Positions 21,604-37,182 of a stretch of DNA of 37,973 bases are shown in pieces. Source of the DNA: a virus. Each line of letters begins with the position of its first letter. The first letter of the stretch is position 1. A model generated the notes under the pieces. The model saw only the letters and a program-made list of their open reading frames with translations, was not told where the DNA came from and searched no databases. The translations under genes were made by a program, and so were the position numbers. The stretch is taken from IMG/VR virus record IMGVR_UViG_3300011115_000552, positions 1 through 37,973 of that record. One strand, 5' to 3'.

Positions 21604-22275
21604 TCAATCCCCTTTTATCATCCCCTTAAAGTCCCAAACATTCTGTACCGCAAACTGGTTTCTCTCTGGGAAGAACATCGTTTCCTTGTCCCTTCTAACC
21701 GAGGATGCCAAGATCATGGGCGAGCTATTGATTCCCCAGAAGTTCTCTGCCCCCCTAATTGCCCTTGCTATTTCTGCAACGCTCGATGCCGTGTAGGTAT
21801 CTAATCCTTGTATCCTAATGTCTGCTGTTGTAAGCACATAGAAATTATCTTTGCCTAGTTCTTTCCATGCGCTTTCTATGAGTGAAAGCGGATTCCTGTA
21901 ATCGCTTTGGCTTATCCCGAAAGGTGCGACTAGGTTATACTTCTCTGGAAGTCCTTTGGCTGGCTTATCGTCTAGCAGATCGAGGATGATGTTCGTCTTG
22001 TCTGCATCCTTAATTTCTGGGTGTGAATAGACAAACTCGTGCCAAGGGATTTTGCTTGCCATAAAAGCCTCATACCGAGTTGGCCAAATTTCTAGGTCTA
22101 TCTTATCGCCTTTGTTCCCTCGTTTACAATAAGAGACCATCTCAAAGACTCCCGCATATTTCTCGTAACAATCAATCAAAACCTCGTGGCCTTTATCGGC
22201 TAGAAACTTGGCGGCGGGTAGGCATCGCAGTACATCCCCGAGACGCTCCCTGTAGATAATGGTTTTAGCGGTCAT
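21604..22275 (-). CDS. Glycosyltransferase family 9-like protein
   Basis: The start YRERLGDVLRCLPAAKFLADK is close to the N-terminal GD-x-L motif of ADP-heptose:LPS heptosyltransferase (GT9) proteins. Later YNLVAPFGISQSDYRNPLSL and EIARAIRGAENFWGINSSPM match the second Rossmann half, where the donor is bound. At 223 residues it is shorter than full GT9 enzymes (about 330). It overlaps the preceding glycosyltransferase gene by 11 bases and ends the cargo block. Confidence 0.65.
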   Translation of the reverse strand: MTAKTIIYRERLGDVLRCLPAAKFLADKGHEVLIDCYEKYAGVFEMVSYCKRGNKGDKIDLEIWPTRYEAFMASKIPWHEFVYSHPEIKDADKTNIILDLLDDKPAKGLPEKYNLVAPFGISQSDYRNPLSLIESAWKELGKDNFYVLTTADIRIQGLDTYTASSVAEIARAIRGAENFWGINSSPMILASSVRRDKETMFFPERNQFAVQNVWDFKGMIKGD

Positions 22276-23032
22276 CAGCAACGCTCTTGTCTTGGAGATG
22301 GTGAAAGTATTGGCTCAATCGAACTGGGCCAGTTGTCTTTTGTAGTTCCTTCCAGCCATCCACCAGCCCATTATACCCATAGAAATCCTCCTTAAACTCA
22401 ACTTGTTTCTGGATGGCGTAGGCATAGTGATCGAACACCAGCCCCCAAGTTTCCGTCACTCCCCTTGGTACTAGTCGAGATTGGATGTTGAGTCGTGGTG
22501 GTTCGTGACTGGTAAAGCATACGCCCTTGCCCCACTTCCAAGCCCGCATCCATTCATACCAGTTCGACCCGAATCCTTCCCTTGTAACCACTCGCTTGTT
22601 TTCGCCTACGAAGAAATTGCAATGGAACTGCATCGTGCATCCATCCTCTGTTCCCTTTAGGCACTCATAGATTTTCTCGATCTGATCTGCCCTCCACATC
22701 TCATCGCAATCCACCTCCATAACTACACCGGAATCTACTCCAAGGAGGGCTTGCTGAATCATCTCTAGCTTCCCGCTGAATGGTTTTCCCTGCGAATAAA
22801 CAACGACATTCCCCCCTTGTATGCTCTCAATATATTCGTGCGTTCCGTCTATGCTCTTGAAGTCCTTATGCCATTTGTCGGGGATTTGCTTGCACCAGCG
22901 GGTGCATCCTAGAGGCTCGCTCACTCCCTCCACAATCCTCCATTGCCAAGGGATTTTCAGCTTTTGAAACTCTGCTAGATGCTTCTCGATAAAGGGCATC
23001 CCATTTAGAACGATGGTGAAGATGGTCAACAT
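22265..23032 (-). CDS. GT-A fold glycosyltransferase, 255 aa
   Basis: The N-terminus MLTIFTIVLNGMPFIEKHLA is typical of glycosyltransferases of the GT2/GT-A type. A DXD-like motif lies in VVMEVDCDEMW, about residue 115, for metal and nucleotide-sugar binding. The C-terminal half is rich in Trp, Tyr and His (WYEWMRAWKWGKG), as in acceptor-binding regions. It probably transfers a sugar to a phage structural protein, modified DNA or host surface glycan; the acceptor is unknown. The start is at ATG 23032, overlapping the upstream gene by seven bases. Confidence 0.7.
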   Translation of the reverse strand: MLTIFTIVLNGMPFIEKHLAEFQKLKIPWQWRIVEGVSEPLGCTRWCKQIPDKWHKDFKSIDGTHEYIESIQGGNVVVYSQGKPFSGKLEMIQQALLGVDSGVVMEVDCDEMWRADQIEKIYECLKGTEDGCTMQFHCNFFVGENKRVVTREGFGSNWYEWMRAWKWGKGVCFTSHEPPRLNIQSRLVPRGVTETWGLVFDHYAYAIQKQVEFKEDFYGYNGLVDGWKELQKTTGPVRLSQYFHHLQDKSVADDR

Positions 23033-23565
23033 TGTTTTACCCAGCAAGATTCTATTTTTTGTGCCTCTGGGAATATCTCATCAACTGCCTTAATGACTCC
23101 CGGCCAAGCAGAGTTATAGTCGTGGCCAGCCAATATGCCGCCCTTGCGAATTTTTGGCATCCAGTTTGTAATGTCCAGCTTCACGGCCTCATAGGAATGG
23201 TCGGCATCTATGAAAACTGCATCTAGAGATTCGTCTTTGAAAAGCCCCGAGGCTTCATTTGTTGTCATTTTGTGGGCTTGGTAGGGTCTGGCAAGGAGAG
23301 ACATATTTGAAGTAAATTTAGAATATGCGTCAGCAGATTTATCTTGTGAGCCGTCAAGGGGGTTTCCTCCCCAAGTATCAACAATATGAACTTCAATCTT
23401 TGGGCTTTTATTGTATGCTTCTACCACAAGAAACGCCGAGCTTCTTCCCTTCCAAGCCCCAAGCTCGACAATCTTTCCATCGTCTCTACAATTCTCCACA
23501 AGCATTTTATAGACATTAGGATAGTTAAACCAATCCTCCTCAAAGTCTGCAACAATATGATTCAT
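23026..23565 (-). CDS. SAM-dependent methyltransferase (Methyltransf_24-like)
   Basis: The class I methyltransferase signature is clear: KIVELGAWKGRSSAFLV (motif I), VHIVDTWGG (motif II), LDAVFIDADHSYEAVKLDI (metal/acid motif) and GGILAGHDY (after motif III). This set is typical of small-molecule or glycan methyltransferases of the Methyltransf_24 group rather than DNA methylases, since there is no DPPY/NPPF motif. It is coupled by ATGA to the upstream FkbM-like gene. Confidence 0.8.
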   Translation of the reverse strand: MNHIVADFEEDWFNYPNVYKMLVENCRDDGKIVELGAWKGRSSAFLVVEAYNKSPKIEVHIVDTWGGNPLDGSQDKSADAYSKFTSNMSLLARPYQAHKMTTNEASGLFKDESLDAVFIDADHSYEAVKLDITNWMPKIRKGGILAGHDYNSAWPGVIKAVDEIFPEAQKIESCWVKQC

Positions 23566-24736: not shown

Positions 24737-24978
24737 TTTGCCATCTCTAATAATGCCTTTTTAACTACATATTGAATGACGGCTTCTGGGTCTTTCTTCA
24801 AGGCTAGTATCCCGCACTCAAACAACTCTTTCTCTGCCTTTTTGTCATAGGTAATATCGAAATCAACAAACTTAGTTTTGCAGGGGCGAGACTTACCAAA
24901 GGTGATTATACCAAGCCCCTTCGTATTCTCTCCCTTTTTGGCTGTCCTACATCCAATTATTTGCTTTGCGCTTTTCAT
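24724..24978 (-). CDS. Hypothetical protein, 84 aa
   Basis: A small basic protein (MKSAKQIIGCRTAKKGENTK at the start) with a strand-rich middle (TKFVDFDITYD) and a C-terminal helix. No family was recognised. It overlaps the end of the glycosyltransferase gene upstream by 32 bases and the next methyltransferase gene by 13 bases. The longer in-frame start would increase the overlap, so ATG 24978 is preferred. Confidence 0.5.
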   Translation of the reverse strand: MKSAKQIIGCRTAKKGENTKGLGIITFGKSRPCKTKFVDFDITYDKKAEKELFECGILALKKDPEAVIQYVVKKALLEMAKCKK

Positions 24979-26599
24979 ATATGGCTTTGCCTTTCTCGTA
25001 GTATTCTGGTTTGTTATGGTTCTTAAGCTGGTCGTCTGGGTTGCCCCCTGCAAACATAGGATTCTCGTGCTTGAATTGGATATGTCGAGCCTCGACTATT
25101 ACTTGGTCTAAGTAAGCAAGGTCTGTGAACTCGTTGTCGGAATATAACCCATCGCTCTCTTGATACTCTGGATGAAACATATGCCCTTGTTTTTTTATCC
25201 TGTCTTTCGTCAGAATGGCCATACAGAGGAGTTTGTCTGTCCTAAGCCCATCTGATACTGCCAAAACCTTCTCTGCCTTTGTATCCCCAATAGCGTTCGA
25301 AATTAGGGCATCCCAATGTCTCGGGGGAGTCCAATCGTCCGACATTTGAATAATGATGTCCCCTTTGGCTATTTTTGCCCCTGCGTTCCAAGCATTAACA
25401 ATCCCGCCGGGGTTGCATCGAATCCCTTGGTGGGGGGTGTAGTCTTGTTTCTCGTCTGCATCCACCATAAAAAGCCATTCAACTTCAAGGGGCTTCTCGG
25501 CCAAGCACAACCATTGCCAGCGTCTTTGCCAAGCAATCTGATGTCGGCCTCTTGTAGCGTGAATCACGCTTATCTTGGGGGCGGGTCTAGCCTTGCGAAT
25601 CTTTTCTGCCTCGCCTAGTTCCCCGACACAAATTGAGGCCGTCTCGAAAATATCCATCGCTTGCCAGTTGTAAACTGATTCAACTAGATTCCAATAGTGG
25701 AGTTTTGGGCGAGCTAGTGCCATCGCTGTCCTTGCCGCTCCGTAGGTCTTTATCCAGTTCCCTTTCCCTGCCCAATGATTCGCAATATAAAAATAAGCCT
25801 CCCGCCTATCTGGTTGAAGTCCTACCGCTTGCCCTAACCAAGAGAGCCTATCGTTATCTCTAACTATTCTCCCTAGATTGCAAAGCACATCGTAGCGAAG
25901 CGTGTCCTCTAGCTCTGGAAAGGCCAAGGCTCTCATACTCGAATCAATGCACTTGTCTATCTGATTGCTTAGAAAATATTCTTGGGCTTGATAATAGAGG
26001 GAGTTGGGGGCAGTAGAGAGTGAGTCGGCTAGGATGTTAAAGTTCCTTTCGGCACTTTTAGACTTATATCCGTCTGGCTTATGGATGCGGAATATCTTAT
26101 CTATACCAATCGTCTTGTTCGCCTCTTTGGTGACAAGCATTTCATGCACCCGATTCTTCCAAGAACAAGTTCCTTTCCTAGAAATTTCTTCACGAAGGGG
26201 AAGTAGGCCAGCGTTTTCAACCCAATATTTTAAGGCTACTAGGTGAGCGTCTTTCTCTATGGCTTGGGCAATAGCTTCCTCCACCACCTTCTCCCCGCCT
26301 TCTGCCATTACATCGTCAGCATCTACCCATAAAGCCCATTCACACTCACAAGCGTCTAGCGCAGTATTCCTAGCAGTTGCAAAATCATCTATATGCTCCC
26401 AATCAGTTCTTTTATTCTGGTAATGAACGACTCTAGCACCGAGAGAAAGTGCGATCTCCTCCGTCTTATCGGCCTTAGCTGACCCCCTAGCCATACATAC
26501 AACAACTTCTTTTGAGATTGGCTTAAACGATTCAATGCAACGCTGGATGTAGGCTTCTTCATTGCCAGCTATAAGATAAACAGAGAGAGGATATTTCAA
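24947..26599 (-). CDS. Two-domain glycosyltransferase with TPR-like middle, 550 aa
   Basis: The N-terminal domain (residues 1-190) is a GT2: LSVYLIAGNEEAYIQRCIES, then a VDADD motif at 92-96. The middle (about 190-330) is helical with repeated Ala/Tyr/Leu patterns (YYQAQEYFLSN, YFYIANHWAGKG) resembling tetratricopeptide repeats. The C-terminal part (about 340-470) begins again like a GT2 (ISVIHATRGR), contains MVDADEKQDY and QMSDDWTPP, and is a second GT-A domain. A protein with two transferase domains could build a disaccharide or polymer. The start is TTG 26597-26599 because the conserved N-terminus begins there; no strong Shine-Dalgarno is present. It is the first gene after the capsid terminator. 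Confidence 0.75.
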   Translation of the reverse strand: MKYPLSVYLIAGNEEAYIQRCIESFKPISKEVVVCMARGSAKADKTEEIALSLGARVVHYQNKRTDWEHIDDFATARNTALDACECEWALWVDADDVMAEGGEKVVEEAIAQAIEKDAHLVALKYWVENAGLLPLREEISRKGTCSWKNRVHEMLVTKEANKTIGIDKIFRIHKPDGYKSKSAERNFNILADSLSTAPNSLYYQAQEYFLSNQIDKCIDSSMRALAFPELEDTLRYDVLCNLGRIVRDNDRLSWLGQAVGLQPDRREAYFYIANHWAGKGNWIKTYGAARTAMALARPKLHYWNLVESVYNWQAMDIFETASICVGELGEAEKIRKARPAPKISVIHATRGRHQIAWQRRWQWLCLAEKPLEVEWLFMVDADEKQDYTPHQGIRCNPGGIVNAWNAGAKIAKGDIIIQMSDDWTPPRHWDALISNAIGDTKAEKVLAVSDGLRTDKLLCMAILTKDRIKKQGHMFHPEYQESDGLYSDNEFTDLAYLDQVIVEARHIQFKHENPMFAGGNPDDQLKNHNKPEYYEKGKAIYEKRKANNWM

Positions 26600-26704: not shown

Positions 26705-27670
26705 TTATGCGAAGTTTGTGGTGATACGAACAGCGGCGTTCGGATCAATGATAACTTCGTCCGTATTCATACGAACCCGGAGCACTTGGCTACGGCGAGC
26801 GTCATCCCGATAGCTTTCCGATACAAAGCCACCAGCCGCATCGCCAGTCCAAACCAAGGTGCGTCCAACTCCACCAGCGGTGAACTCACCACCAGTAATT
26901 TGACCCACGATGATTTTAGTGTCTGGAACAACGAACGAACCAGAGTAGCTCTTGTTCTTGCCAGCGGTATTGTAAGCCGCACGACCAATCAAGAGGTTCG
27001 TGACGCCGAGAGCCGCCGCAATCTCCGCTTCGGAGAGCAAGCGAGCACCTGTGCTAGAAATCACTCCGAAGAATTGGTTTTGCAATAGGGTCGAGCGACG
27101 AATCAACTCAAACACATTGGCCGACATCGCAACGCAATTTGACTCATACCCATATTGGGCGAGGGCCAACTTGGCCGCCGCCACATCACGAGCGATATCT
27201 ACTGTTGCAACTAAGGCTTGGGTGTAGGCAACTGCACGAGTTTGGTCAGCAATAGTGAAGGGAGTTGAGCTAGCCCAGAGAAGATCGGCCACCCGCTTCT
27301 CGTGGGAGAGTTTCAACTGACGAAGCAAGAACTTCGCTGTTTCGCTCTCGTATGAGAAGAAACGATTCAAGTCAGCGGAAGCATCATCAGGAAGCAATTC
27401 TTCCAGTCCGAATTCCGAAGTTGCAAAATTTGCCGAGCTGAAAGAACGAATTCCTCTGCTGTAGTTAGAACCACTTTCACGATTGAGAGCGTTGTTGCTG
27501 AGGAGTTCGCCAGCCGCCAACTGCACTTTCAGATATGTTCCCGCTTTCGCATCAACATTCTGAAGGGGCAATAATTGCGCTCCGATCAAACCCACATCCG
27601 CTTGAGGGGCCTCAATGAGAGCCTGTGAGATGTCCGCCCTAATAGTTGTTCCGCCGTTAATAAATGCCAT
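26705..27670 (-). CDS. Major capsid protein (HK97 fold)
   Basis: The 321-residue protein fits a small HK97-type capsid subunit: an N-terminal arm (TTIRADISQALIEAPQ), a long spine-helix region (SETAKFLLRQLKLSHEKRVA) and a late P-domain/A-domain mixture with GAAYNT-type loops and VVPDTKIIVGQITGGEFTAG. The C-terminal part (DDARRSQVLRVRMNTDEVII) is typical of this group, in which capsid genes follow a protease and a small decoration gene. It ends at a strong terminator. No separate N-terminal scaffold domain is seen, consistent with the nested scaffold upstream. Confidence 0.85.
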   Translation of the reverse strand: MAFINGGTTIRADISQALIEAPQADVGLIGAQLLPLQNVDAKAGTYLKVQLAAGELLSNNALNRESGSNYSRGIRSFSSANFATSEFGLEELLPDDASADLNRFFSYESETAKFLLRQLKLSHEKRVADLLWASSTPFTIADQTRAVAYTQALVATVDIARDVAAAKLALAQYGYESNCVAMSANVFELIRRSTLLQNQFFGVISSTGARLLSEAEIAAALGVTNLLIGRAAYNTAGKNKSYSGSFVVPDTKIIVGQITGGEFTAGGVGRTLVWTGDAAGGFVSESYRDDARRSQVLRVRMNTDEVIIDPNAAVRITTNFA

Positions 27671-28080: not shown

Positions 28081-28482
28081 TTAGAGTTTGAAAATACCAC
28101 GAGTCAAAGCCTCGGTGTATTCGGTTGGGTTTGATAGCATCACGGCCTTCATAGCCTTGAGCTTAGAAGTTCCGTAATCGCTATGGGCGGCCACGAGTGC
28201 TTCAAAATTCTTGGGTTCTTCCTTTTTCTCGGAAGGAACTTCGATGGAGGGCGAGGCGGGGATGGGCTTAATGCCGAACTCGGTGAGAACTTTCTTCACC
28301 ACCGCACTCATCTCCTCGTCCTTCTTATCTTCGGAGGGTTCAATCTCAACGGAGACTTCGGGGGCGGGAGTTTCGGAGGGCTTCTCCTCTTTTTGCATTT
28401 CTTCTTTGGGTTTCATAGCGGCTTCAAGAGCCGATAAGCGGACTTTAATGTCCTCAACATCTTTCATATATTGGTCATCCAT
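28081..28482 (-). CDS. Nested in-frame scaffold protein, 133 aa
   Basis: An internal ATG at 28480-28482 lies in frame with the protease (its residue 217) and is preceded by AAAAAGGTTAAAACTAAT. This is nearly the same ribosome-binding region as that of the decoration gene just downstream. The product is helical and very acidic in the middle (SEDKKDEEMSAVVKKVLTEF), as scaffolds are. Production of a scaffold from an internal start inside a protease gene matches lambda Nu3 within C. Confidence 0.6.
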   Translation of the reverse strand: MDDQYMKDVEDIKVRLSALEAAMKPKEEMQKEEKPSETPAPEVSVEIEPSEDKKDEEMSAVVKKVLTEFGIKPIPASPSIEVPSEKKEEPKNFEALVAAHSDYGTSKLKAMKAVMLSNPTEYTEALTRGIFKL

Positions 28483-29130
28483 ATTAGTTTTAACCTTTTT
28501 GTCAAGTGGTGCGCTCTCTACAACAGCTTGTGGGATTGTCCCACCAGAAACATAACCTAGCTTTTCCATAAACTTAACCATCTCCTCGAAGAGTCCGTTT
28601 GTAGCCGCCGGCGAGGAAACAAGATCAGCCGATGCGATGCTCTGGGGTCTGATGTAGTCCTTTCCATCAATCGTCTCGCTCTCGTTTACAAAGGCCAAAG
28701 ACACGCCGAACTGGTCGGGGGCTTCGCTGGCCATCTCTTTGATAAGGCCATAATGAGGAGAGTTGCGGAGTAAGCGGAGATCGGCAACCAGCTTGTTCCC
28801 CTCAATGCGGGGATTCCTTGCAAACCCTACGCAAGCCGATAATCCCGATCCATGATCCATCTTAACTTTAGTCCCATTCTTGGCCATCTTCATTAGGTCG
28901 AGGGCTTTGCTTAGGCTAACTGCATCTACAAAGAGATCGTGGCCTTTAGCCTCTCCCACTTCAAGAATGGAGACTGAGGCCATCTCGGTTTCGTCATCAG
29001 CATAGGTGGAGTAAGCAACCGCTGAACGCTGGCTTTCGTCTGGGAAATCGCTTATCGCTTGGTCATCCCCCATAAAGCGGGAAACGAAGTCTTTCTCTGA
29101 TTCATCTGCGCTAGGAATTGGTAGGGGCAT
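28081..29130 (-). CDS. Prohead protease with C-terminal scaffold domain
   Basis: The N-terminal part (residues 1-215) contains FVSRFMGDDQAISDFPDESQ, a segment I recall from the N-terminus of phage portal/protease proteins. It then has MDHGSGLSACVGFARNP (candidate catalytic His), FGVSLAFVNESE (Ser) and ASADLVSSPAATNGLF, which together look like the Ser-His protease fold used for head maturation. Residues 217-349 are an acidic coiled-coil scaffold that can also be made alone. The ATG lies in the loop of a perfect hairpin (29120-29141) that also covers the GGTAGGG purine block. Confidence 0.7.
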   Translation of the reverse strand: MPLPIPSADESEKDFVSRFMGDDQAISDFPDESQRSAVAYSTYADDETEMASVSILEVGEAKGHDLFVDAVSLSKALDLMKMAKNGTKVKMDHGSGLSACVGFARNPRIEGNKLVADLRLLRNSPHYGLIKEMASEAPDQFGVSLAFVNESETIDGKDYIRPQSIASADLVSSPAATNGLFEEMVKFMEKLGYVSGGTIPQAVVESAPLDKKVKTNMDDQYMKDVEDIKVRLSALEAAMKPKEEMQKEEKPSETPAPEVSVEIEPSEDKKDEEMSAVVKKVLTEFGIKPIPASPSIEVPSEKKEEPKNFEALVAAHSDYGTSKLKAMKAVMLSNPTEYTEALTRGIFKL

Positions 29131-29146: not shown

Positions 29147-29971
29147 TCAAAGGAGATCGCCGTCTGCTTCTCGATACGACTTCTTAACCTCTCCACCGCC
29201 AGCCATCTTGAGAAACTTGTTCACCCTAGCCATCGCCCAAGCGTTCCTAGAGTTGGGCTTCCCCCCGCTGATGGTAGGTCGAAAACTGGTGGAGAACGCC
29301 CCTGCTCCCCTTCGGAATACTTTCTTCAATGCTCCGATGCTGGGTGCGTTTTTCTTGGGGTGATCTTTCTTGAACTCGGCAATCTTGTTCTTCAAGGCTT
29401 CCTCGTTCTGTTCTGAAATCTCAATATCCCCAGCCTTGCTCCGGGTGCTTGCTGTGCCTTCGGGGTTCTCCTTTGAGCCTTTGATTCGTTCCTTGGGAGG
29501 GGCGGGGGTCTGGGAGACTGGTCGGGCTAGTTCTTCTTTCTTGTCTGTGATCGGGCCACCCACAATCCAAGCGTCACAAGTCCTTTTAGATGCACACTTA
29601 AAATCAAAAATCTCGCAGTAGCCAAGATTCCCACCCACGGCTACTTCGTTGGCATCCTCGCCAATCCCCTTCTTGATACATCCTAGAATCTTGTTCCTCT
29701 GGTCAAAGGCCGCACAATTCCCGCAAAGCATCTTCTTTGCTGTTGGTACATCCCCTTGAAATTCGTCTGCCTTGGCTTTCCAATAGTCCTCGTTGGGTTC
29801 GTTAGGATTGGCTGGGCCATAGTTCGCATCGTCCACGGCTGTCTGCCTATTGGCTAGGTTGGTCTTTACATCTTGCGTTGCGATTGGGCAAGAGGCTGGT
29901 TCGGCTAGTTCTTTGTCGCTTGCGATTGTGATTACAGAATCACCTATTTCTTGCTCTTTGATATTGCTCAT
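29147..29971 (-). CDS. Cys-rich head-region protein, 274 aa
   Basis: Six Cys cluster in residues 83-132 (CGNC, then single Cys, GYCE, CASK and TCDAW), a pattern that suggests a zinc or iron-sulfur site, somewhat like HiPIP-type clusters. The middle is polar linker. The C-terminal 80 residues (APSIGALKKVFRRGAGAFST; RNAWAMARVNKFLKMAGGG) match a helical module found at the ends of many phage head proteins, ending in a DGDLL-type tail. The protein is probably part of the virion or head assembly. The start overlaps the portal stop as ATGA. Confidence 0.65.
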   Translation of the reverse strand: MSNIKEQEIGDSVITIASDKELAEPASCPIATQDVKTNLANRQTAVDDANYGPANPNEPNEDYWKAKADEFQGDVPTAKKMLCGNCAAFDQRNKILGCIKKGIGEDANEVAVGGNLGYCEIFDFKCASKRTCDAWIVGGPITDKKEELARPVSQTPAPPKERIKGSKENPEGTASTRSKAGDIEISEQNEEALKNKIAEFKKDHPKKNAPSIGALKKVFRRGAGAFSTSFRPTISGGKPNSRNAWAMARVNKFLKMAGGGEVKKSYREADGDLL

Positions 29972-32900
29972 ATTTGTTCTATTTCTACAAAGTGAGTTTT
30001 TGATTTGCCTGTGGTTAATGTTCTTTGGCTTGTTACTCGATAGTTGCCCTTTGGAAGAACCACCTCCTTGAATGATGAATCAAGGGCTGGGCGTTTTGAA
30101 TTTATTGTGCTTATTCCTCTTTTTGCTTTAATCTTAAATAGTATTGAATCTCCATCTTGAGCCTTGCTTCCGCTTCTATTTGCATATTTTGCCGCTACCT
30201 CTGGGTCTGACGATGCAGACATAACAGCGGCAAATTTTATGCTTTTATCCCCTTTAAGTATTTGGTCTAGGATTGGCTTGCTCTGTGATGAGTCTGCCCG
30301 AAATCCTCTGTATATTGTCTGCTCAGACTTAAAACTAGAGTTTGCAAGTTTGTTGAGCTCTCCAATTCTCTTGTCTACCGCTACTTTGGCTTTTGCTATG
30401 TAGGGCTTTAGATTCTCGTTATCACCAATTCGAGCATATTTTCTTATTGATTTCAATTCATTTTCATTAAATGTATCACCAGTTATATCCTCAATCAGTT
30501 GGGCTTGACTATTACCAGCAACCACCGAGGTCAATCTATTAAACGCATCATTTTCAGACATTCCGCTTTCTTTGAATCTTTCATATGCAATCCAAGGAGA
30601 GCCAGCGTTTCCTCGGTAGTCATCGACAATCTGCTTTTCTTCTGATGTCGATTGTCTCTTATCATCCTCATATGCATTGGTTTTCGTGTACGCATCTTTA
30701 ATGGCCTTCATATGATCTTCTTCGGACACATCGGCAGAATTTTTATTATCGTATTTATATTTATCTAGTACGCCTGTTTCCTTTGGGCTTGGGGCAAGAG
30801 GCTTCTGTGGTTCTGCCTTTTCCTTTTTATCGCCTTGGGGTGTTGGTCGTTTATAGTCCTTTGGGATTTGTCCTCCGGGTCTGGTTGGTTCGTAGCCACC
30901 CTTGAGCGGGGGTCTGCCGTAGCCTACTGCACATTCGTTGGATGGCCCGAAAGTCCCGCCCTCGGATTGCCCACAATCCCTACCCGCTACGAACTCAGTT
31001 TTCTTGTCCCTCGCATCCATCTGACCAACCACTTTCTTTGCCCAAGAATAGCCAGCATCCCCGCCCCATCCATTCCACGCTTGCCATCCTTTTCCTTGTT
31101 CTCCGAAGGTCGAGCCTTTCTTGTCCACTTCGTGCCTATCGAAAAAGGCTTTCATCCTTTTAATAGTGTCGGGCGACATCTTCACCCCATTCTGCAAGTC
31201 TCTAGCCCTAGCAAGCCCTACTGGGGTCATTCCTCGTTGGCTAGGTGGTTTGGTCTCCCGCACCTCTAAGGCTCTTTTAGCGGCATCTCTAGCTCCTTGC
31301 GGGGGTGTAAAATCAATCCCATCATACTTTGCCAACTCAATGCCACCCATCATCCCCTCAATCAGCATCTTGATTGATGCAGGGTCGAGGCTTTCTAAAA
31401 TCTCTAAGCTACTTTTTTTTTGTGCGGTTGCCGTGGGGGCGGTCGGGGGTGTGGTAGGTTCTGGGACTGGGGGGGTCGAGCCTCCCGAAGTATCGCCTCC
31501 CTCGTCTTTCGCAATCTGTTGTTTCTCTTCCTTGGTCGTGGGGATGGTTGTACCGATATTGACCCCTGCGATGATTGCCCTTGCTTGGTCTGGGCTGATG
31601 GTCGGGAAGGCCGCCGTGATGATAGAGATTGCACCCTCTTTGGAAACTGCACCAATAGCCACGGCGTTGATGATGTTGATAAGCGATGAGACTTGCGCTC
31701 CGTTGAGCGAAGCACCGCCAAGCATATCCGCATCGCCTTCTTGACCTTGGGGCTGGTCGGTTGGCTTCTGCGCTGTCTGCACTTGACTTTCCCTTTGAAG
31801 TCCTTGCATAGCAATATCTGAAATTGTGTCGGCTGAAACTTCATATTCCCCAGACAAGTCCTTAATCAGCTTGGCCTCAATCGCCCTCTGTCTCATTGCG
31901 CTCTCAAAGTCTTGGCCACGTTCGGCGTAGATGTCGGCGGCGGTTCGGAGTCCTGTCTTGAACTCGGAGATTGCGGAAGCGGATTCTCTGCCCAAATCAA
32001 TAGAGACATTCGCCCCAAAGTTAAAGATGCCCTTGGCTGTTCTGCTTCCAGAGTTGTTCTCGATCAATCCCCTAGCAACTGCATCGGCGATTACGATGTT
32101 CTTAATTGGGCGAAGAACCTTATCGTCTAGGAGCTTCTGGTATCTGCGGAAAGTTCGCCCCGCTTGTTGCATTTCTAGGCGAGCGGTTGGGCCACTCATA
32201 GCGGAAGGGTCAACGGCGAAGCTGTAAGGGATGCCTACCCCTAAGCAAATGTTGCGGAGTAGAATCTTGTGAAATTCTGCGAACGCACCACTTGGTCTGT
32301 TCGGGCCATCGGGGAACTGAATCGTTTCGCCCGGTTCGAGATAACTGACCTTGCCCGATTCCATTGTCTCTAGCTTGATCGCTTGGTTATCAAAATTGTT
32401 ATCAGCTGTCAGATCACTCAAGTCCGAAGCATTATTGTTGTTTCTTAGAACGATAGCACTCTGCGAACTCGCTACCTTAGCGGACATCTTTTCAAAATTG
32501 ATTATGTCGTAAATGTCTTGTGCATCGTTAATTGCGGTATGAAAAGCAGAGATGCCCCTATACTGGTCGATGCGTAGTGGGTCGTATAGGTGGAACGCTT
32601 GGCTTGCGCTCACCTTTTGTTGAAAGGTGTAAGCATTTCCAATAGATCGTGCAAAAATATCGTAGGCAGTAGGAGCACCAGTTTCTTGATCTATGTGGAT
32701 GCCCCCGATTAGATCGCTAGTGGTATAAACTTGAAATGGATTGCCGAGTCGATCTGCTTCGATGCCTTGTAATTTTAGATCGCCATTATTGTCTCTAATC
32801 AAAAGGAATAAAAAGTCACCATCTCGGAGCATCGACATCACCGCAACTTGCATAAGGGTTGAACCAGTATGCCTAGTTGAGATGTCGCAGTTATCCCACC

Positions 32901-33249
32901 ATTCAGACCAGAACGATTCAACATCTGTATTCACCGCTGGCTCGCTAGTCCGTGCTTGGTAGGAAACATTGGCCGCCGTGTGCGAGGCAAACTTCATTAA
33001 GATAGATCGAACCAATCCAACATTCTCAGCTAAGTCCCTGCTCCGCTTCATTAGTTCAATACGATCGTATCCAGTCCGATAACTCTCCGCACCCTGCAAC
33101 ACGCTCGGGCCTTTGCGCTCCCGATTGTACTTAGTCGCATCGTAGTTAAAATGGGTCAGCTTTGCCCTTGCAATCGCTCTATTAACTCCCGCTTGTGGGT
33201 TGACCAAGGCCACGGCTCGGTCGATTAGGTTAAGGGATATTTTCTTCAC
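29968..33249 (-). CDS. Portal protein fused to a C-terminal ADP-ribosyltransferase-like domain, 1093 aa
   Basis: Residues about 1-500 are a lambda gpB-type portal: ARAKLTHFNYDATKYNRERKG near the start in pieces, a SFWSEWWDNCDIS block, ADRLGNPF, FHLYDPLRIDQYRG and GIPYSFAVDPSAMSG toward the end. After a Gln/Pro linker, residues about 660-740 hold a phage module (TPVGLARARDLQNGVKMSPD; AWNGWGGDAG). Then comes GRDCGQSEGGTFGPSNECA, and finally an ADP-ribosyltransferase-like domain (about 960-1093): TIYRGF (Arg981), FAAVMSASSDPEVAAKYA (STS-type motif, 1007-1024) and FKEVVLPKGNYRV with Glu1062. The residue two before this Glu is Phe, not the usual Glu/Gln. Portals of this type normally have about 450-550 residues. 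The last 800 bases are richer in A+T than the portal part, suggesting separate origin. The start is GTG, coupled to the previous gene. Confidence 0.8.
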   Translation of the reverse strand: MKKISLNLIDRAVALVNPQAGVNRAIARAKLTHFNYDATKYNRERKGPSVLQGAESYRTGYDRIELMKRSRDLAENVGLVRSILMKFASHTAANVSYQARTSEPAVNTDVESFWSEWWDNCDISTRHTGSTLMQVAVMSMLRDGDFLFLLIRDNNGDLKLQGIEADRLGNPFQVYTTSDLIGGIHIDQETGAPTAYDIFARSIGNAYTFQQKVSASQAFHLYDPLRIDQYRGISAFHTAINDAQDIYDIINFEKMSAKVASSQSAIVLRNNNNASDLSDLTADNNFDNQAIKLETMESGKVSYLEPGETIQFPDGPNRPSGAFAEFHKILLRNICLGVGIPYSFAVDPSAMSGPTARLEMQQAGRTFRRYQKLLDDKVLRPIKNIVIADAVARGLIENNSGSRTAKGIFNFGANVSIDLGRESASAISEFKTGLRTAADIYAERGQDFESAMRQRAIEAKLIKDLSGEYEVSADTISDIAMQGLQRESQVQTAQKPTDQPQGQEGDADMLGGASLNGAQVSSLINIINAVAIGAVSKEGAISIITAAFPTISPDQARAIIAGVNIGTTIPTTKEEKQQIAKDEGGDTSGGSTPPVPEPTTPPTAPTATAQKKSSLEILESLDPASIKMLIEGMMGGIELAKYDGIDFTPPQGARDAAKRALEVRETKPPSQRGMTPVGLARARDLQNGVKMSPDTIKRMKAFFDRHEVDKKGSTFGEQGKGWQAWNGWGGDAGYSWAKKVVGQMDARDKKTEFVAGRDCGQSEGGTFGPSNECAVGYGRPPLKGGYEPTRPGGQIPKDYKRPTPQGDKKEKAEPQKPLAPSPKETGVLDKYKYDNKNSADVSEEDHMKAIKDAYTKTNAYEDDKRQSTSEEKQIVDDYRGNAGSPWIAYERFKESGMSENDAFNRLTSVVAGNSQAQLIEDITGDTFNENELKSIRKYARIGDNENLKPYIAKAKVAVDKRIGELNKLANSSFKSEQTIYRGFRADSSQSKPILDQILKGDKSIKFAAVMSASSDPEVAAKYANRSGSKAQDGDSILFKIKAKRGISTINSKRPALDSSFKEVVLPKGNYRVTSQRTLTTGKSKTHFVEIEQI

Positions 33250-33482
33250 GGGCCAAATTTTGCGTATGTTGTTCTAATCCTTGTGCCACTCAGATTTTGA
33301 ATGGCAAGCGTTAGTTCGGCGATTGTTGACGAAACTTCACCGAGGTTCGCCCTAGAAAAAGAACGACCAGCTATCGAATACGAGCTACCCGCCACCGCAA
33401 TAGCCTCAAGGCAGGTGACATATTTGTCACGCAAGGAGGTTAGGGTGGCTAGGGGTAGCCCAATAAAATCACCCCTCGCCAT
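33246..33482 (-). CDS. Small head-tail joining / gpW-like protein, 78 aa
   Basis: This 78-residue helical protein lies between large terminase and portal, the position of gpW-type head-completion proteins. The pattern LATLTSLRDKYVTCLEAIAV, then FSRANLGEVSSTIAELTLAI, is typical of the two-helix gpW-like family. It is thought to plug the portal after packaging. It overlaps the terminase end by 14 bases, and its stop overlaps the GTG of the portal. Confidence 0.75.
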   Translation of the reverse strand: MARGDFIGLPLATLTSLRDKYVTCLEAIAVAGSSYSIAGRSFSRANLGEVSSTIAELTLAIQNLSGTRIRTTYAKFGP

Positions 33483-35259
33483 TGATTTCCTCCTCTGTCA
33501 AACTTGCGGGTGATATTTTGAGGAGCTTGTATAGGCCAGCCCCCACTATATTCATGCACTCACAATCGAGTAAGTGGTTCTGCTTTCCTATCTGCTTCCA
33601 CACCATCCTAGTTCTGCCGTTGAGGGGGTTCTTCACCGCCACTTTCACCTCTGCCCTAATATGAGTATGCCAAACTTCGGGAGCGTCATCAGCCACAAAT
33701 CCGTCCGAGTGGAGTAGATTGGAGAGTATGTCTTTGATTGATGGATTAGACCAGCGCCATACAGGGCAAAGCCTCCACTTCCATCCGAGTCTCGATTGCC
33801 CTACCTTACCCGATAGGGGGTCTCCATTAGAGATTCTTGCAAAGGGTCGGGTGACTTTCTGCTCCCCTACAATCTCCGAGAAGGAGGAGCGATCTGAACC
33901 AACCAAGGCTATCCATCCGTGCAAGCAACATTGATAATAAACATCTCGGGTTTGATCGCCCGAATCTATAAAGACCATTTTGGGCTGTACCTTAAACTCG
34001 TCTGCCTTTGCTTCAATGTCTCCCCAAGTTTCAAGGCGGCCAGCCCATACCATCCTAGACTTGCCTTCATCATTATAGGCTCGAACCAGTACCCAAGTGT
34101 GAAAGCCACCGGACTCTTGCACATCGACGCTCATCACGCACTTCTCTCCCTCCCTAACCTCGCCCATTTTATATCCACCCGCCTTAATCTCGATTCGTTC
34201 TTGTTCGTGTTCTAACCAAGGCTCGGCCAATACTCGATTGATAAAATCTTGCAAGCCCACAATCCCCGCATACTTATCTTGCAGAAACTTAACTGCCAAG
34301 CTCCCGAATGTTACCCACGGAGCGTACAGGCCGTTGAGGTGGTAGGAGCGCCTAGCTGGTTCGCCGTTGGGGTTGGTTGCCTTCCATTCACCCCCTCGAA
34401 GCATAGCGGTTTTTTGTCCATCGGTGATTGGCTTCTTGCATCCCTCACACTCATAAAAGGCTGAGGATTTTACTAGGGCGAAGTCATACACGCTGTCCTC
34501 TAGTTTCGCCTTATCGTCCCACTTAATCTGTCCCCAGATAAGTTTTTGTTTTAATCCGCAGTATGGACAGGGCACAAAGAAGAACCGCATATCCCCTTTA
34601 AGCCACTCGCTCCAAATCGTACTATCTGCCGTAGTCGGGGTGCTGGTGGTTATGATTAGGTGGTTCGGGTAGGTGCTAACTCTCGCCTCTGCCAGTTGCA
34701 ACGCTCCCGCCTCTGTTTTGCTTGACCCTGCCTCTGGGTATTTGTCCACCTCATCGAGCATCAAAAGGGAAACGCTACGAGACGCAAGATTGGCGGGGCT
34801 GTTGCTTCCCACAAACCAAAGGCTCATCTTTCGGAAATGCTGTTCGAGAATCTTGATCTTGTCTGTGTTGTCGGGCTTTTCTTTTGCTAGGGCTGGGCAG
34901 TCATCAATCATCGGTAGCCACCTAGTTTCTGAGAACGATCTAGCAAGAGCCTCGGAGGGCATAACCCAAAGGGCAGGGCAAGGCCGCTCGGCTAGTCGAT
35001 AGGCTAGGCCAGCGAGAATAGTTGTAGTCTTGGAAGTCTGCGCTCCCCAAACTAGGCACACCCGCCGAACTGAATCATCACCGAAAGCCTCAAGGGGTTC
35101 TCGGACATAGGGCGTTAAGTTGGTCGAGTACGCACCGGGGATGTTCGTCACCCTTGCCGATAGCGTAAGGTTTTTCTCTGCCCACTCTGGAATTGAAAGA
35201 TGCTCTCTGGGTTTGAATAAATCTCTAGTGAATCCGTTGACTTCCGCAAGCGTGTTCAT
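33469..35259 (-). CDS. terL: Large terminase subunit (TerL, lambda gpA-like)
   Basis: The 596-residue protein has the gpA-like layout: an N-terminal EWAEKNLTLSARVTNIPGAY segment, a Walker A-type loop WGAQTSKTTT (71-80), Walker B LLMLDEVD (165-172), a TSTPT coupling motif near 200 and a zinc-type CPYCG / CEGCKK region. The nuclease domain contains SVDVQESG and FIDSGDQTRDVYYQCC. It cuts and pumps DNA into proheads. gpA-like terminases usually act at cos sites, in agreement with the short terminal repeat. ATG 35259 overlaps the HNH stop as ATGA and is preferred over upstream alternatives. Confidence 0.92.
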   Translation of the reverse strand: MNTLAEVNGFTRDLFKPREHLSIPEWAEKNLTLSARVTNIPGAYSTNLTPYVREPLEAFGDDSVRRVCLVWGAQTSKTTTILAGLAYRLAERPCPALWVMPSEALARSFSETRWLPMIDDCPALAKEKPDNTDKIKILEQHFRKMSLWFVGSNSPANLASRSVSLLMLDEVDKYPEAGSSKTEAGALQLAEARVSTYPNHLIITTSTPTTADSTIWSEWLKGDMRFFFVPCPYCGLKQKLIWGQIKWDDKAKLEDSVYDFALVKSSAFYECEGCKKPITDGQKTAMLRGGEWKATNPNGEPARRSYHLNGLYAPWVTFGSLAVKFLQDKYAGIVGLQDFINRVLAEPWLEHEQERIEIKAGGYKMGEVREGEKCVMSVDVQESGGFHTWVLVRAYNDEGKSRMVWAGRLETWGDIEAKADEFKVQPKMVFIDSGDQTRDVYYQCCLHGWIALVGSDRSSFSEIVGEQKVTRPFARISNGDPLSGKVGQSRLGWKWRLCPVWRWSNPSIKDILSNLLHSDGFVADDAPEVWHTHIRAEVKVAVKNPLNGRTRMVWKQIGKQNHLLDCECMNIVGAGLYKLLKISPASLTEEEINGEG

Positions 35260-35540
35260 CGCCTCACCATATAATCTTTTGCATATGCCCACGCTGGATT
35301 CATATGAATCTTGTGGTGGCAATCAAAGCACACCGCCAAGAAGAACTCTACCTCATTGAGCCTGTCCCCGAATCTCCCCCGCCTATGATGAACTTGGCTT
35401 GCTACGCTTGAACATACTTGGCAGAGAGGGTTGAGGGTTAAGAACTTTTCCCTCACTTCCTTGTAAACATCATTCTGCAACTTTCTTTTCTTGGACACTC
35501 GGCGTAGCGGTGTCTTGCGTTTTAGGGGGGAGCGTTTCAT
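35256..35540 (-). CDS. HNH endonuclease, 94 aa
   Basis: The start at ATG 35540 gives a basic N-terminus (MKRSPLKRKTPLRRVSKKRK), then an HNH domain with CQVC, QVHHRRGRFGDR (catalytic His pair), VCFDCHHKIHMNP (second Cys pair and His). HNH proteins next to the terminase are needed for cos cleavage in several siphoviruses. The stop overlaps the terminase start. This again supports a cos-type packaging system. Confidence 0.85.
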   Translation of the reverse strand: MKRSPLKRKTPLRRVSKKRKLQNDVYKEVREKFLTLNPLCQVCSSVASQVHHRRGRFGDRLNEVEFFLAVCFDCHHKIHMNPAWAYAKDYMVRR

Positions 35541-35618: not shown

Positions 35619-35699
35619 TCATTCGTCTTTGTCGAAGTATGGCAAAATCAACCCCAATAGGCAAAGGCCAACTACAATGAATAGAAAGCACTCGTTCAT
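35619..35699 (-). CDS. Membrane micro-protein, 26 aa
   Basis: The 26-residue frame begins MNECFLFIVVGLCLLGLILP and ends in an acidic tail (YFDKDE). Its ATG overlaps the stop of the upstream deoxyribosyltransferase-like gene (ATGA), so it is probably translated. It is a single membrane segment with no recognisable function. Confidence 0.5.
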   Translation of the reverse strand: MNECFLFIVVGLCLLGLILPYFDKDE

Positions 35700-36109
35700 T
35701 TGCGGCAAGCAATAATTGTGTCGCAAAAAGCTCGCAACTCTTTTATTGTATCCTCAAATCTTCCAACATTCCTTGCCCTAGCCAATAGCCAAGGGGAGGG
35801 ATTTTCGCTTGATGTAAAGAACAAGACTGGCTTCCCCTTCATATGTGCGTAGAAAATCTCCATAGCTGTTCCCCATCCCGGCTTATCTGCGTTTGCTAAA
35901 ACAACATCGGCCTTGTCCACTTGCATCAAATCGGCCTTTACGATGCTATTGCTATTTACAACATCGAACTTTGTTCCTCGGAAGTCTCTGTCTAGAGGGT
36001 TTAAGATTTCATATAGGTCTTGAAGTTCTGTTGTGGCCACGCCTCTCCACTCTTGCTCTTGATCAGTTGTCCCATAGATCGGGCCAGATAAATATAGTTT
36101 TGGTTTCAT
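35696..36109 (-). CDS. Nucleoside 2-deoxyribosyltransferase-like protein, 137 aa
   Basis: The motifs YLSGPIYG at the N-terminus, KADLMQVDKADVVLAN in the middle, GWGTAMEIFYAHMKGKPVLF and SPWLLARARN toward the end match the nucleoside deoxyribosyltransferase / DUF4406-type fold, in which a Glu such as that in TAMEIFYA forms the glycosyl intermediate. Such enzymes swap or hydrolyse the base of deoxynucleosides. Beside dpdA and queD it may trim unwanted nucleotides or recycle displaced bases; this is inference. ATGA overlaps join it to queD upstream. Confidence 0.65.
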   Translation of the reverse strand: MKPKLYLSGPIYGTTDQEQEWRGVATTELQDLYEILNPLDRDFRGTKFDVVNSNSIVKADLMQVDKADVVLANADKPGWGTAMEIFYAHMKGKPVLFFTSSENPSPWLLARARNVGRFEDTIKELRAFCDTIIACRK

Positions 36110-36543
36110 AGTGCCTCTACCTTAACTCTATTATCCCTGCCTTCACGCAGTAAGACTGACTTCAATTTTAGTTTGTCACAATTAAAATGAAGCAGTCTTT
36201 TGAAAAACCAGTTGGCAACATTCTCAAGTGTTGTTGGAAAAATAAAGACATCGTTTAGATTTGAGTGATCACAAGCAGAAACCAAGGTTTGCGTAAATGA
36301 TTTCAAATGTCCGAAAGGCCATATCATAGGCTCTGCCTCTGTGGGAAAACCCTGCCATTCAACCTCCAAATAGTATGTGTGTCCGTGATCGTAAAAGCAT
36401 TTTGATAAATCGACAAGAAATGGTTGCGATAGGTAGCTAAAATCTTCTTGTTTAAGTTTATGTGAAGAATCAAATGTGAATGATTGTGTTATGGTGTATG
36501 TTGCATTTCCAAGGTGATCGTTAGGCGGGTGTTTCATAGGCAT
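36106..36543 (-). CDS. queD: QueD-like 6-carboxytetrahydropterin synthase
   Basis: Residues typical of the 6-pyruvoyl/6-carboxytetrahydropterin synthase family are present: FTFDSSHKL (first zinc His), KCFYDHGHTY (catalytic-type Cys four before the His-x-His zinc ligands), HLKSFTQTL, ACDHSNLND (catalytic His), FPTTLENVANWFF and LLREGRDNR (Glu). QueD makes the second intermediate toward preQ0, the 7-deazaguanine precursor of queuosine and of deazaguanine-modified DNA. No folE, queE or queC is in the window, so the host must provide other steps. The start at 36543 has GGAGG at good spacing; 36537 overlaps the dpdA stop as ATGA and is the alternative. Confidence 0.8.
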   Translation of the reverse strand: MPMKHPPNDHLGNATYTITQSFTFDSSHKLKQEDFSYLSQPFLVDLSKCFYDHGHTYYLEVEWQGFPTEAEPMIWPFGHLKSFTQTLVSACDHSNLNDVFIFPTTLENVANWFFKRLLHFNCDKLKLKSVLLREGRDNRVKVEAL

Positions 36544-37148
36544 AATTGTCTCCTCCCTGTTATGTATTTTTCCTCAAGATAGTCGATCAATGGTTGGATT
36601 CTTTTTAATCCTCCACGCACCCACCCAGTTCCATCGCAACTTTCAACTCCGTTCTCGTCACATATCCAAAGCCCCTCGTATGAATTGACCCTTCCACAAT
36701 GAACTCGTTTTCCCATCTTGCAAAATTCTGGTAGCATCTTCCACTTCCACTCAAACGAACCTCCAATAAATATTACCTCTGCTTCCGCTGGAACATCCTC
36801 TTGCGTCATTCCGTCTTGAACTACAAATGCGGGGTTGAACCCAAGTGATTTTATTCTACCGGAATGTATGCCCCATCTTGTAATCGTTTCTTCTTTGTCT
36901 AAAACCTTGTCTGGACAAGCAACCCACAATGGCTTTCTTGATGGTTCAACATTCCCAAGCATCTCATAAAAGGCGGCCTCATCCCATTCTGTTTTGTTTG
37001 TGAACGCATAAAAAGCCCCATTATCAAGGGCGTATGGAATCACCTCTGGTATGTATCTCCACCCATTCGGAGACACTAAAAGACCTATTGAGCCTATGAA
37101 CTTTCCAGCTAGATATCCTATCATAAAGCCTGTATTATTTGCTGGCAT
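36534..37148 (-). CDS. dpdA: DpdA-like DNA guanine transglycosylase (7-deazaguanine insertion)
   Basis: The protein resembles phage DpdA-family enzymes, short relatives of tRNA-guanine transglycosylase that exchange guanine in DNA for preQ0 or related bases. Seen from ATG 37148: NTGFMIGYLAGKFIGSIG, PYALDNGAFYAF (candidate catalytic Asp; ALDNGAF 40-46), VACPDKV (76-82), VVQDGM (109-114), EVIFIGGSFEWKW (125-137) and HCGRVNS (150-156). These lie in the TIM-barrel order expected. At 204 residues it is much smaller than bacterial DpdA but similar in size to phage forms. GTG 37157 is an alternative start. It is followed directly by queD, which strongly supports the function. It lies between the two terminase genes and is A+T rich compared with them. 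Confidence 0.75.
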   Translation of the reverse strand: MPANNTGFMIGYLAGKFIGSIGLLVSPNGWRYIPEVIPYALDNGAFYAFTNKTEWDEAAFYEMLGNVEPSRKPLWVACPDKVLDKEETITRWGIHSGRIKSLGFNPAFVVQDGMTQEDVPAEAEVIFIGGSFEWKWKMLPEFCKMGKRVHCGRVNSYEGLWICDENGVESCDGTGWVRGGLKRIQPLIDYLEEKYITGRRQLCL

Positions 37149-37182
37149 AATTATCACTTAGCCTCCCCCATTAAAAGCTCAT

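What the first reader, a model, noticed from the sequence alone, without database searches (positions are those of the whole stretch)
29968..33249. Portal protein carrying a C-terminal ADP-ribosyltransferase-like effector
The portal is about twice the normal length. Its C-terminus has R (TIYRG), STS-like (MSASSD) and catalytic-type Glu (KEVVLPKG) motifs in the order of ADP-ribosyltransferase exoenzymes. Established knowledge: some phages inject ART proteins (T4 Alt) or fuse ART to MuF head proteins. Fusion to the portal would place about 12 enzyme copies at the DNA exit vertex, possibly released by the head protease and injected with DNA.
Basis: partly seen in the sequence, partly recalled or inferred. 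Interest (0 to 1): 0.85.

Follow-up and report, generated by a model that had tools for sequence, protein, structure and literature searches.

The report
Phage portal with swappable injected enzymes
A freshwater phage has built an ADP-ribosyltransferase-fold enzyme onto the protein ring through which its DNA passes, and its close relatives carry different enzymes at the same spot behind a short two-cysteine peptide, so the phage head appears to carry interchangeable cargo, probably meant for the infected cell.

Summary
ORF 29968-33249(-) is one 1093-aa lambda-family portal. AlphaFold2 of residues 829-1093 with seven relatives gives an ADP-ribosyltransferase (ART) fold: pLDDT 81.5, and all 50 best solved-structure matches shown are ARTs or ART-fold toxins. 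Arg981, the Ser-Ala-Ser motif and Glu1062 are invariant. The residue two before Glu1062, normally Glu/Gln, is Phe or Leu in all eight, so target and even transferase activity are open.

The larger finding: the ART is one of several exchangeable cargoes. Across 76 complete related ORFs the portal trunk is conserved, while the C-terminus is one of three ART subfamilies, an HExxH (zincin-like) domain, something unknown, or nothing. Cargo changes at least 25 times on the trunk tree. A short two-cysteine block (M) precedes cargo in 51/51 ORFs; 24 of 25 portals without it carry none. The same motif links portals of three Pfam families to ART, zeta-toxin and GNAT domains in other uncultivated phages, and is almost absent from 85,000 prokaryotic genomes (3 hits, against at least 120 viral stretches).

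Portal-effector fusions, ARTs included, were already reported; the swapping trunk and M motif appear undescribed. Release and injection are inferred, not shown.

The parts
29968..33249 (-). Portal-cargo fusion ORF, 1093 aa, GTG start
31750..33249 (-). Lambda-family portal, about residues 1-500
   Evidence: PF05136 E 2.9e-51, phrog_21; solved portals 8vhx, 8k38 by sequence
31015..31329 (-). Helical P module, residues 641-745 (phrog_2859, unknown function). In marine phages it sits instead at the N-terminus of the S78 protease-capsid fusion
30814..31002 (-). M block, residues 750-812; present before cargo in the clade
30928..30975 (-). Two-cysteine motif CGQSEGGTFGPSNECA inside the M block
29971..30765 (-). 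ART-fold domain, residues 829-1093; R981, S1011/S1013, E1062; G+C 38.5% against 50% in the trunk
29147..29971 (-). Next gene: cysteine-rich HiPIP-like module (H) plus DUF5824-like module (D); fused in frame to the portal in many relatives
28081..29130 (-). Candidate S78-like prohead protease plus scaffold; the likely enzyme to free the cargo (no Pfam match; inferred from collinear H93 and S144)
26705..27670 (-). Major capsid protein
   Evidence: phrog_1005 E 6e-25
33469..35322 (-). Large terminase, gpA type
   Evidence: PF05876 E 2e-62

Best explanation
The gene is the phage's structural portal with an added cargo arm. About 12 copies (established portal stoichiometry) assemble at one vertex with the C-terminal arms inside the head. 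The arm is a helical P module, then a two-cysteine M block, then an exchangeable enzyme. In this phage the enzyme is an ART-fold domain that probably binds NAD and either ADP-ribosylates a host target or hydrolyses NAD. The cargo is most likely cut free during head maturation, or leaves with the DNA, and acts in the infected cell in the first minutes. Recombination replaces the cargo cassette downstream of the conserved M block, so close relatives carry different ARTs or HExxH domains. Shown here: fusion, predicted ART fold, conservation, cassette exchange, M-cargo association. Inferred: location inside the head, release, injection, enzymatic activity.
For: Single ORF with portal domain. ART fold and invariant R/S/E residues, purifying selection. 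Cargo classes on one trunk: ART-A 8, ART-B 2, ART-C 1, HExxH 39 (28 short, 11 long), other 2, none 24. Trunk tree needs at least 25 cargo changes; the 6 ART-A rows need 6. DNA homology stops near residue 811 and resumes in the downstream gene when cargoes differ. M block with cargo 51/51, against 1/25 without it; that exception carries the generic motif. No space for an immunity gene between cargo and next gene, e.g. 94 nt in L004 and 56 nt in L039. An ART-C relative, L039, passes Pfam's ART cut-off. Cargo G+C differs from the trunk.
Against: No protein, virion or activity data. The window ART itself passes no Pfam cut-off, and Phe/Leu replaces the usual Glu/Gln two residues before the catalytic Glu, so it could have altered activity or be a binding domain. 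Metagenomic contigs can be chimaeric at conserved segments, although the pattern recurs on dozens of contigs. The candidate protease is identified only by weak alignment.
Confidence: 0.75

Rival explanations
1. The ART is not injected; it stays on the portal or is removed at maturation, and acts in the producing cell late in infection or in assembly.
For: It is encoded among the late head genes; head proteases commonly remove extensions (established knowledge).
Against: Cargoes with unrelated folds exchange at one site, which suits host-directed effectors better than an assembly role. Relatives without cargo exist, so it is dispensable for assembly.
Confidence: 0.15
2. The ART fold is catalytically dead and serves as a binding or decoy domain.
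For: F/L instead of E/Q two before the catalytic Glu in all eight relatives.
Against: R981, S1011/S1013 and E1062 are invariant at 44-48% identity. Sister cargoes L010, L012 and L039 keep E-x-E.
Confidence: 0.15
3. A MuF-type polymorphic toxin system used between bacteria, with an immunity gene.
For: Same logic of conserved head protein plus variable C-terminal toxin (PMC5576092).
Against: No MuF match in the portal ORF or the next gene, no room for an immunity gene beside the cargo, no sign here that this is a prophage.
Confidence: 0.05

Closest known systems
MuF polymorphic toxins of temperate phages (PMC5576092; MuF-ART fusions in PMC9503650)
   Same: Conserved head protein with variable C-terminal enzymes, ARTs among them, proposed to be injected with DNA
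   Different: Here the carrier is the portal itself; no MuF domain, no adjacent immunity gene, and a two-cysteine M block precedes the cargo
Portal fusions to PBECR, 2H, Nudix or ART domains (PMC5512222, PMC9503650)
   Same: Effector domain fused to a portal. Portal-annotated proteins with ART fold matches are already deposited (A0A6J5S481, A0A8S5N2S9)
   Different: Those reports name fusions; the passages read do not describe cargo exchange on one portal lineage or the M motif
T4 Alt
   Same: Head-packaged phage ART that acts on entry
   Different: Alt is a separate internal protein, not part of the portal, and (from general knowledge) keeps the E-x-E motif that this domain lacks
Polyvalent proteins (PMC5512222)
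   Same: Several effector and structural modules in one virion-linked polypeptide, ART and zincin included
   Different: Here the first module is the structural portal, with cargo at a fixed C-terminal site

Membership tests
Lambda-family phage portal (PF05136) | Profile match above curated cut-off | tested here: met
   175 bits against 32.9
Lambda-family phage portal (PF05136) | Dodecameric ring at one capsid vertex | not testable with these tools
   Needs structure or virions; adjacent gpA-type terminase and capsid genes fit
ADP-ribosyltransferase superfamily (R-S-E class) | ART fold | tested here: met
   pLDDT 81.5, pTM 0.80; Foldseek 4xzk E 3.9e-8; VIA Z 12.9; the 50 best VIA entries are all ARTs or ART-fold toxins
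ADP-ribosyltransferase superfamily (R-S-E class) | Catalytic Arg, Ser-x-Ser and Glu in order | tested here: met
   R981, S1011/S1013, E1062 invariant in 8 sequences
ADP-ribosyltransferase superfamily (R-S-E class) | NAD-dependent catalysis | not testable with these tools
   Needs an enzyme assay
Arginine- or Gln/Asn-specific mono-ART ([E/Q]-x-E subclass, e.g. PF03496) | Glu or Gln two residues before the catalytic Glu | tested here: not met
   Phe or Leu in all 8
Arginine- or Gln/Asn-specific mono-ART ([E/Q]-x-E subclass, e.g. PF03496) | Pfam PF03496 or PF01129 cut-off | tested here: not met
   No Pfam match for 29968-30780; sister cargo L039 does pass PF01129
MuF polymorphic toxin | MuF domain | tested here: not met
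   No PF04233 match in the portal ORF or the next gene
MuF polymorphic toxin | Conserved N-terminal carrier with variable C-terminal effector | tested here: met
   At least 25 cargo changes on the trunk tree
MuF polymorphic toxin | Adjacent immunity gene | tested here: not met
   Cargo stop is within about 0-100 nt of the next conserved gene
Injected virion effector (T4 Alt-like) | Present in virions and ejected with DNA | not testable with these tools
   Needs purified virions and infection experiments

The most novel reading that the evidence does not exclude
The two-cysteine motif [N/D/G]CGTG[A/S/E]GGF[K/Q]xGNxCA is a virus-specific cargo tag shared by unrelated tailed phages. It marks proteins or domains for carriage in the head, and perhaps for cleavage or redox-controlled release, whether they are fused to a portal, a protease or MuF, or encoded alone. 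Finding it would then predict injected effectors from sequence.
Probability: 0.4. Interest if true: 0.88.

Novelty: new variant of a known kind. Interest (0 to 1): 0.72.

Why it matters
If the cargo is delivered, the portal is both the DNA gate and a loading dock whose enzyme can be replaced by recombination, which gives a direct way to see which early host targets these phages need. The motif offers a sequence handle for finding head-borne effectors in uncultivated phages, where most such proteins have no annotation, and it makes the question of how a phage loads and releases early-acting proteins testable with one peptide.

Tried and rejected
Frameshift or assembly artefact joining two genes: rejected, the same fusion occurs on independent contigs. 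ART domain in cultured phages by protein search: no match. Structure of P plus M: P is helical with moderate confidence and no significant PDB match; M is unpredicted, pLDDT about 40. M block in cultured phages: only four Streptomyces phage hits at E 0.7 or worse; the one inspected lies almost wholly outside annotated genes and was dismissed as noise. S78 protease by Pfam: no match for the window gene, only a weak three-sequence alignment. Published description of the motif: not found, though the paper library holds mainly open-access work. Host: closest terminases are about 31% identical or less, so host not assigned.

Full report
What is there. ORF 29968-33249 on the minus strand is one uninterrupted 1093-residue frame with a GTG start. 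Residues 61-371 match the lambda-family portal PF05136 at 175 bits, and phrog_21 (portal) covers 1-500. It lies between a gpA-type terminase and the protease-candidate and major capsid genes, so it is most likely the structural portal. No second copy was found in the 37,973-base virus record. Its stop overlaps the start of the next gene.

The C-terminal domain. Residues 829-1093 gave no Pfam match and no match in cultured phages, but seven relatives were found in IMG/VR. AlphaFold2 on the eight-sequence alignment gave pLDDT 81.5 and pTM 0.80. Foldseek ranked ADP-ribosyltransferases first (4xzk, E 3.9e-8), and the second aligner gave Z 12-13 with ARTs or ART-fold toxins in all 50 rows shown. 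R981, S1011, S1013 and E1062 are invariant although most relatives are only 44-48% identical to the window. dN/dS is 0.06-0.44 where it could be computed. The residue two before E1062 is Phe or Leu throughout, not Glu or Gln. By established ART enzymology that residue helps attack the acceptor, so the target, and even transferase activity, is open.

Interchangeable cargo. In related contigs the first ~750-811 residues are conserved and the end varies. Among 76 complete 3' ends the cargo is ART-A (8), ART-B (2), ART-C (1), an HExxH domain (39, of which 28 short and 11 long), unknown (2) or none (24). HExxH domains are called zincin-like from that motif alone. ART-C passes Pfam's ART cut-off; ART-B is called ART from its E-x-E-F-V-L-P motif only. 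Blastn shows homology stopping near residue 811 and resuming in the next gene (L004, L010, L009, L070), and whole blocks in different orders (L030, L081). On a tree of the trunk the cargo label needs at least 25 changes over 69 rows (61 different); the six ART-A rows need six changes, as many as shuffled labels. The ART cassette has 38.5% G+C against 50% for the trunk. I read this as recent and repeated exchange.

The M block. Cargo follows a block of about 60 residues containing CGQxxGGTFGPxNxCA or a close variant: 51 of 51 ORFs with M have cargo, and 1 of 25 without M does (Fisher p 7e-19). That one, L068, carries the generic form CGTGAGGFKEGNTCA. Relatedness inflates the p-value, but the cargo changes on the tree show the association is repeated. 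Without M the portal ends in H and/or D modules, which in the window are the separate next gene.

The motif elsewhere. Positions left free in the pattern are also conserved: N, D, G or E before the first Cys in 83 of 84, Thr at +2 in 73 of 84, Lys or Gln at +8 in 73 of 84. Of 60 stretches before the motif, Pfam finds portals of three families (13 lambda, 10 HK97-like, 7 Mu-like; a protein can match more than one, as L092 does) and 2 S78 proteases. Of 67 stretches after it, none of the 25 Pfam families listed is a portal; ART-PolyVal 5, ADPrib_exo_Tox 3, ART 2, PARP 1, KptA 1, zeta toxin 1 and a GNAT domain appear (six further families are not listed). Exceptions exist: one ART-PolyVal match lies before the motif, and a MuF domain and an S78_2 protease lie after it (L108, L102), so the polarity is a strong tendency, not a rule. 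L145 shows the usual order directly: HK97-like portal 126-424, motif 845, GNAT 891-954, ART-PolyVal 1001-1066. Some small ORFs begin with the motif and continue into an ART-like (L158) or unknown (L157) domain; L158's domain, without the motif, is found in head proteins of cultured phages. Of the three hits in prokaryotic genomes, two (a Singulisphaera acidiphila chromosome, L211, and an alphaproteobacterial MAG contig, L209) also carry the motif in portal-like ORFs (portal identity of these two judged by eye, not by profile).

How it probably works. Portals are dodecamers and their C-terminal ends can project into the head; the P22 barrel is an example (abstract of PMC4992974). Twelve arms with cargo would therefore sit inside, near the exit channel. 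The next genes include a candidate S78-like protease, and in Roseobacter and Synechococcus phages the P module lies directly upstream of the S78 protease in one polypeptide, which fits a head polyprotein that is cut during maturation. Release, ejection and host action remain inference. M may be a cut site, a fold that needs two cysteines, or a packaging tag; the model gave it low confidence and I cannot decide.

Prior art. ARTs fused to portal and MuF proteins, and other enzymes fused to portals, are reported (PMC9503650, PMC5512222), and MuF proteins with variable toxins are an established family (PMC5576092). I found no report of the M motif or of cargo exchange on a portal. The finding is therefore a new variant of a known kind, with a possibly new cargo tag.

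Noticed in passing
window 29147-29971, residues ~20-150 of that gene: Cysteine-rich module whose relatives are annotated 'high potential iron-sulfur protein' in lake and spring phages; a possible iron-sulfur domain among head genes.
   Followed up: partly
window 35696-36543: PTPS/QueD-like gene (PF01242) beside a nucleoside 2-deoxyribosyltransferase-like gene (PF05014); with the unassigned gene 36534-37157 this may be a modified-base (7-deazaguanine) pathway.
   Followed up: partly
window 24947-26599 and 22265-23047: Two glycosyltransferase-like genes inside the structural gene cluster; the second is below Pfam's cut-off.
   Followed up: no
L209 ORF on - strand, 745 aa: Portal-like ORF in an alphaproteobacterial MAG with the motif at residue 512 and a P-like module near its C-terminus: the same modules on another portal type.
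   Followed up: partly
L211 (Singulisphaera acidiphila DSM 18658), 936-aa ORF: Portal-like ORF with the motif, a long KPNAST repeat linker and an unknown C-terminal domain, in a cultured bacterium's chromosome.
   Followed up: partly
L013:7096-8718: A second motif-linked tail on the downstream H-D gene, so one phage may carry two cargoes.
   Followed up: no
L101, L102, L110, L111, L116, L127, L130, L151, L167, L168: Two or three copies of the two-cysteine motif in one ORF or in neighbouring ORFs, as if separating several cargoes.
   Followed up: no
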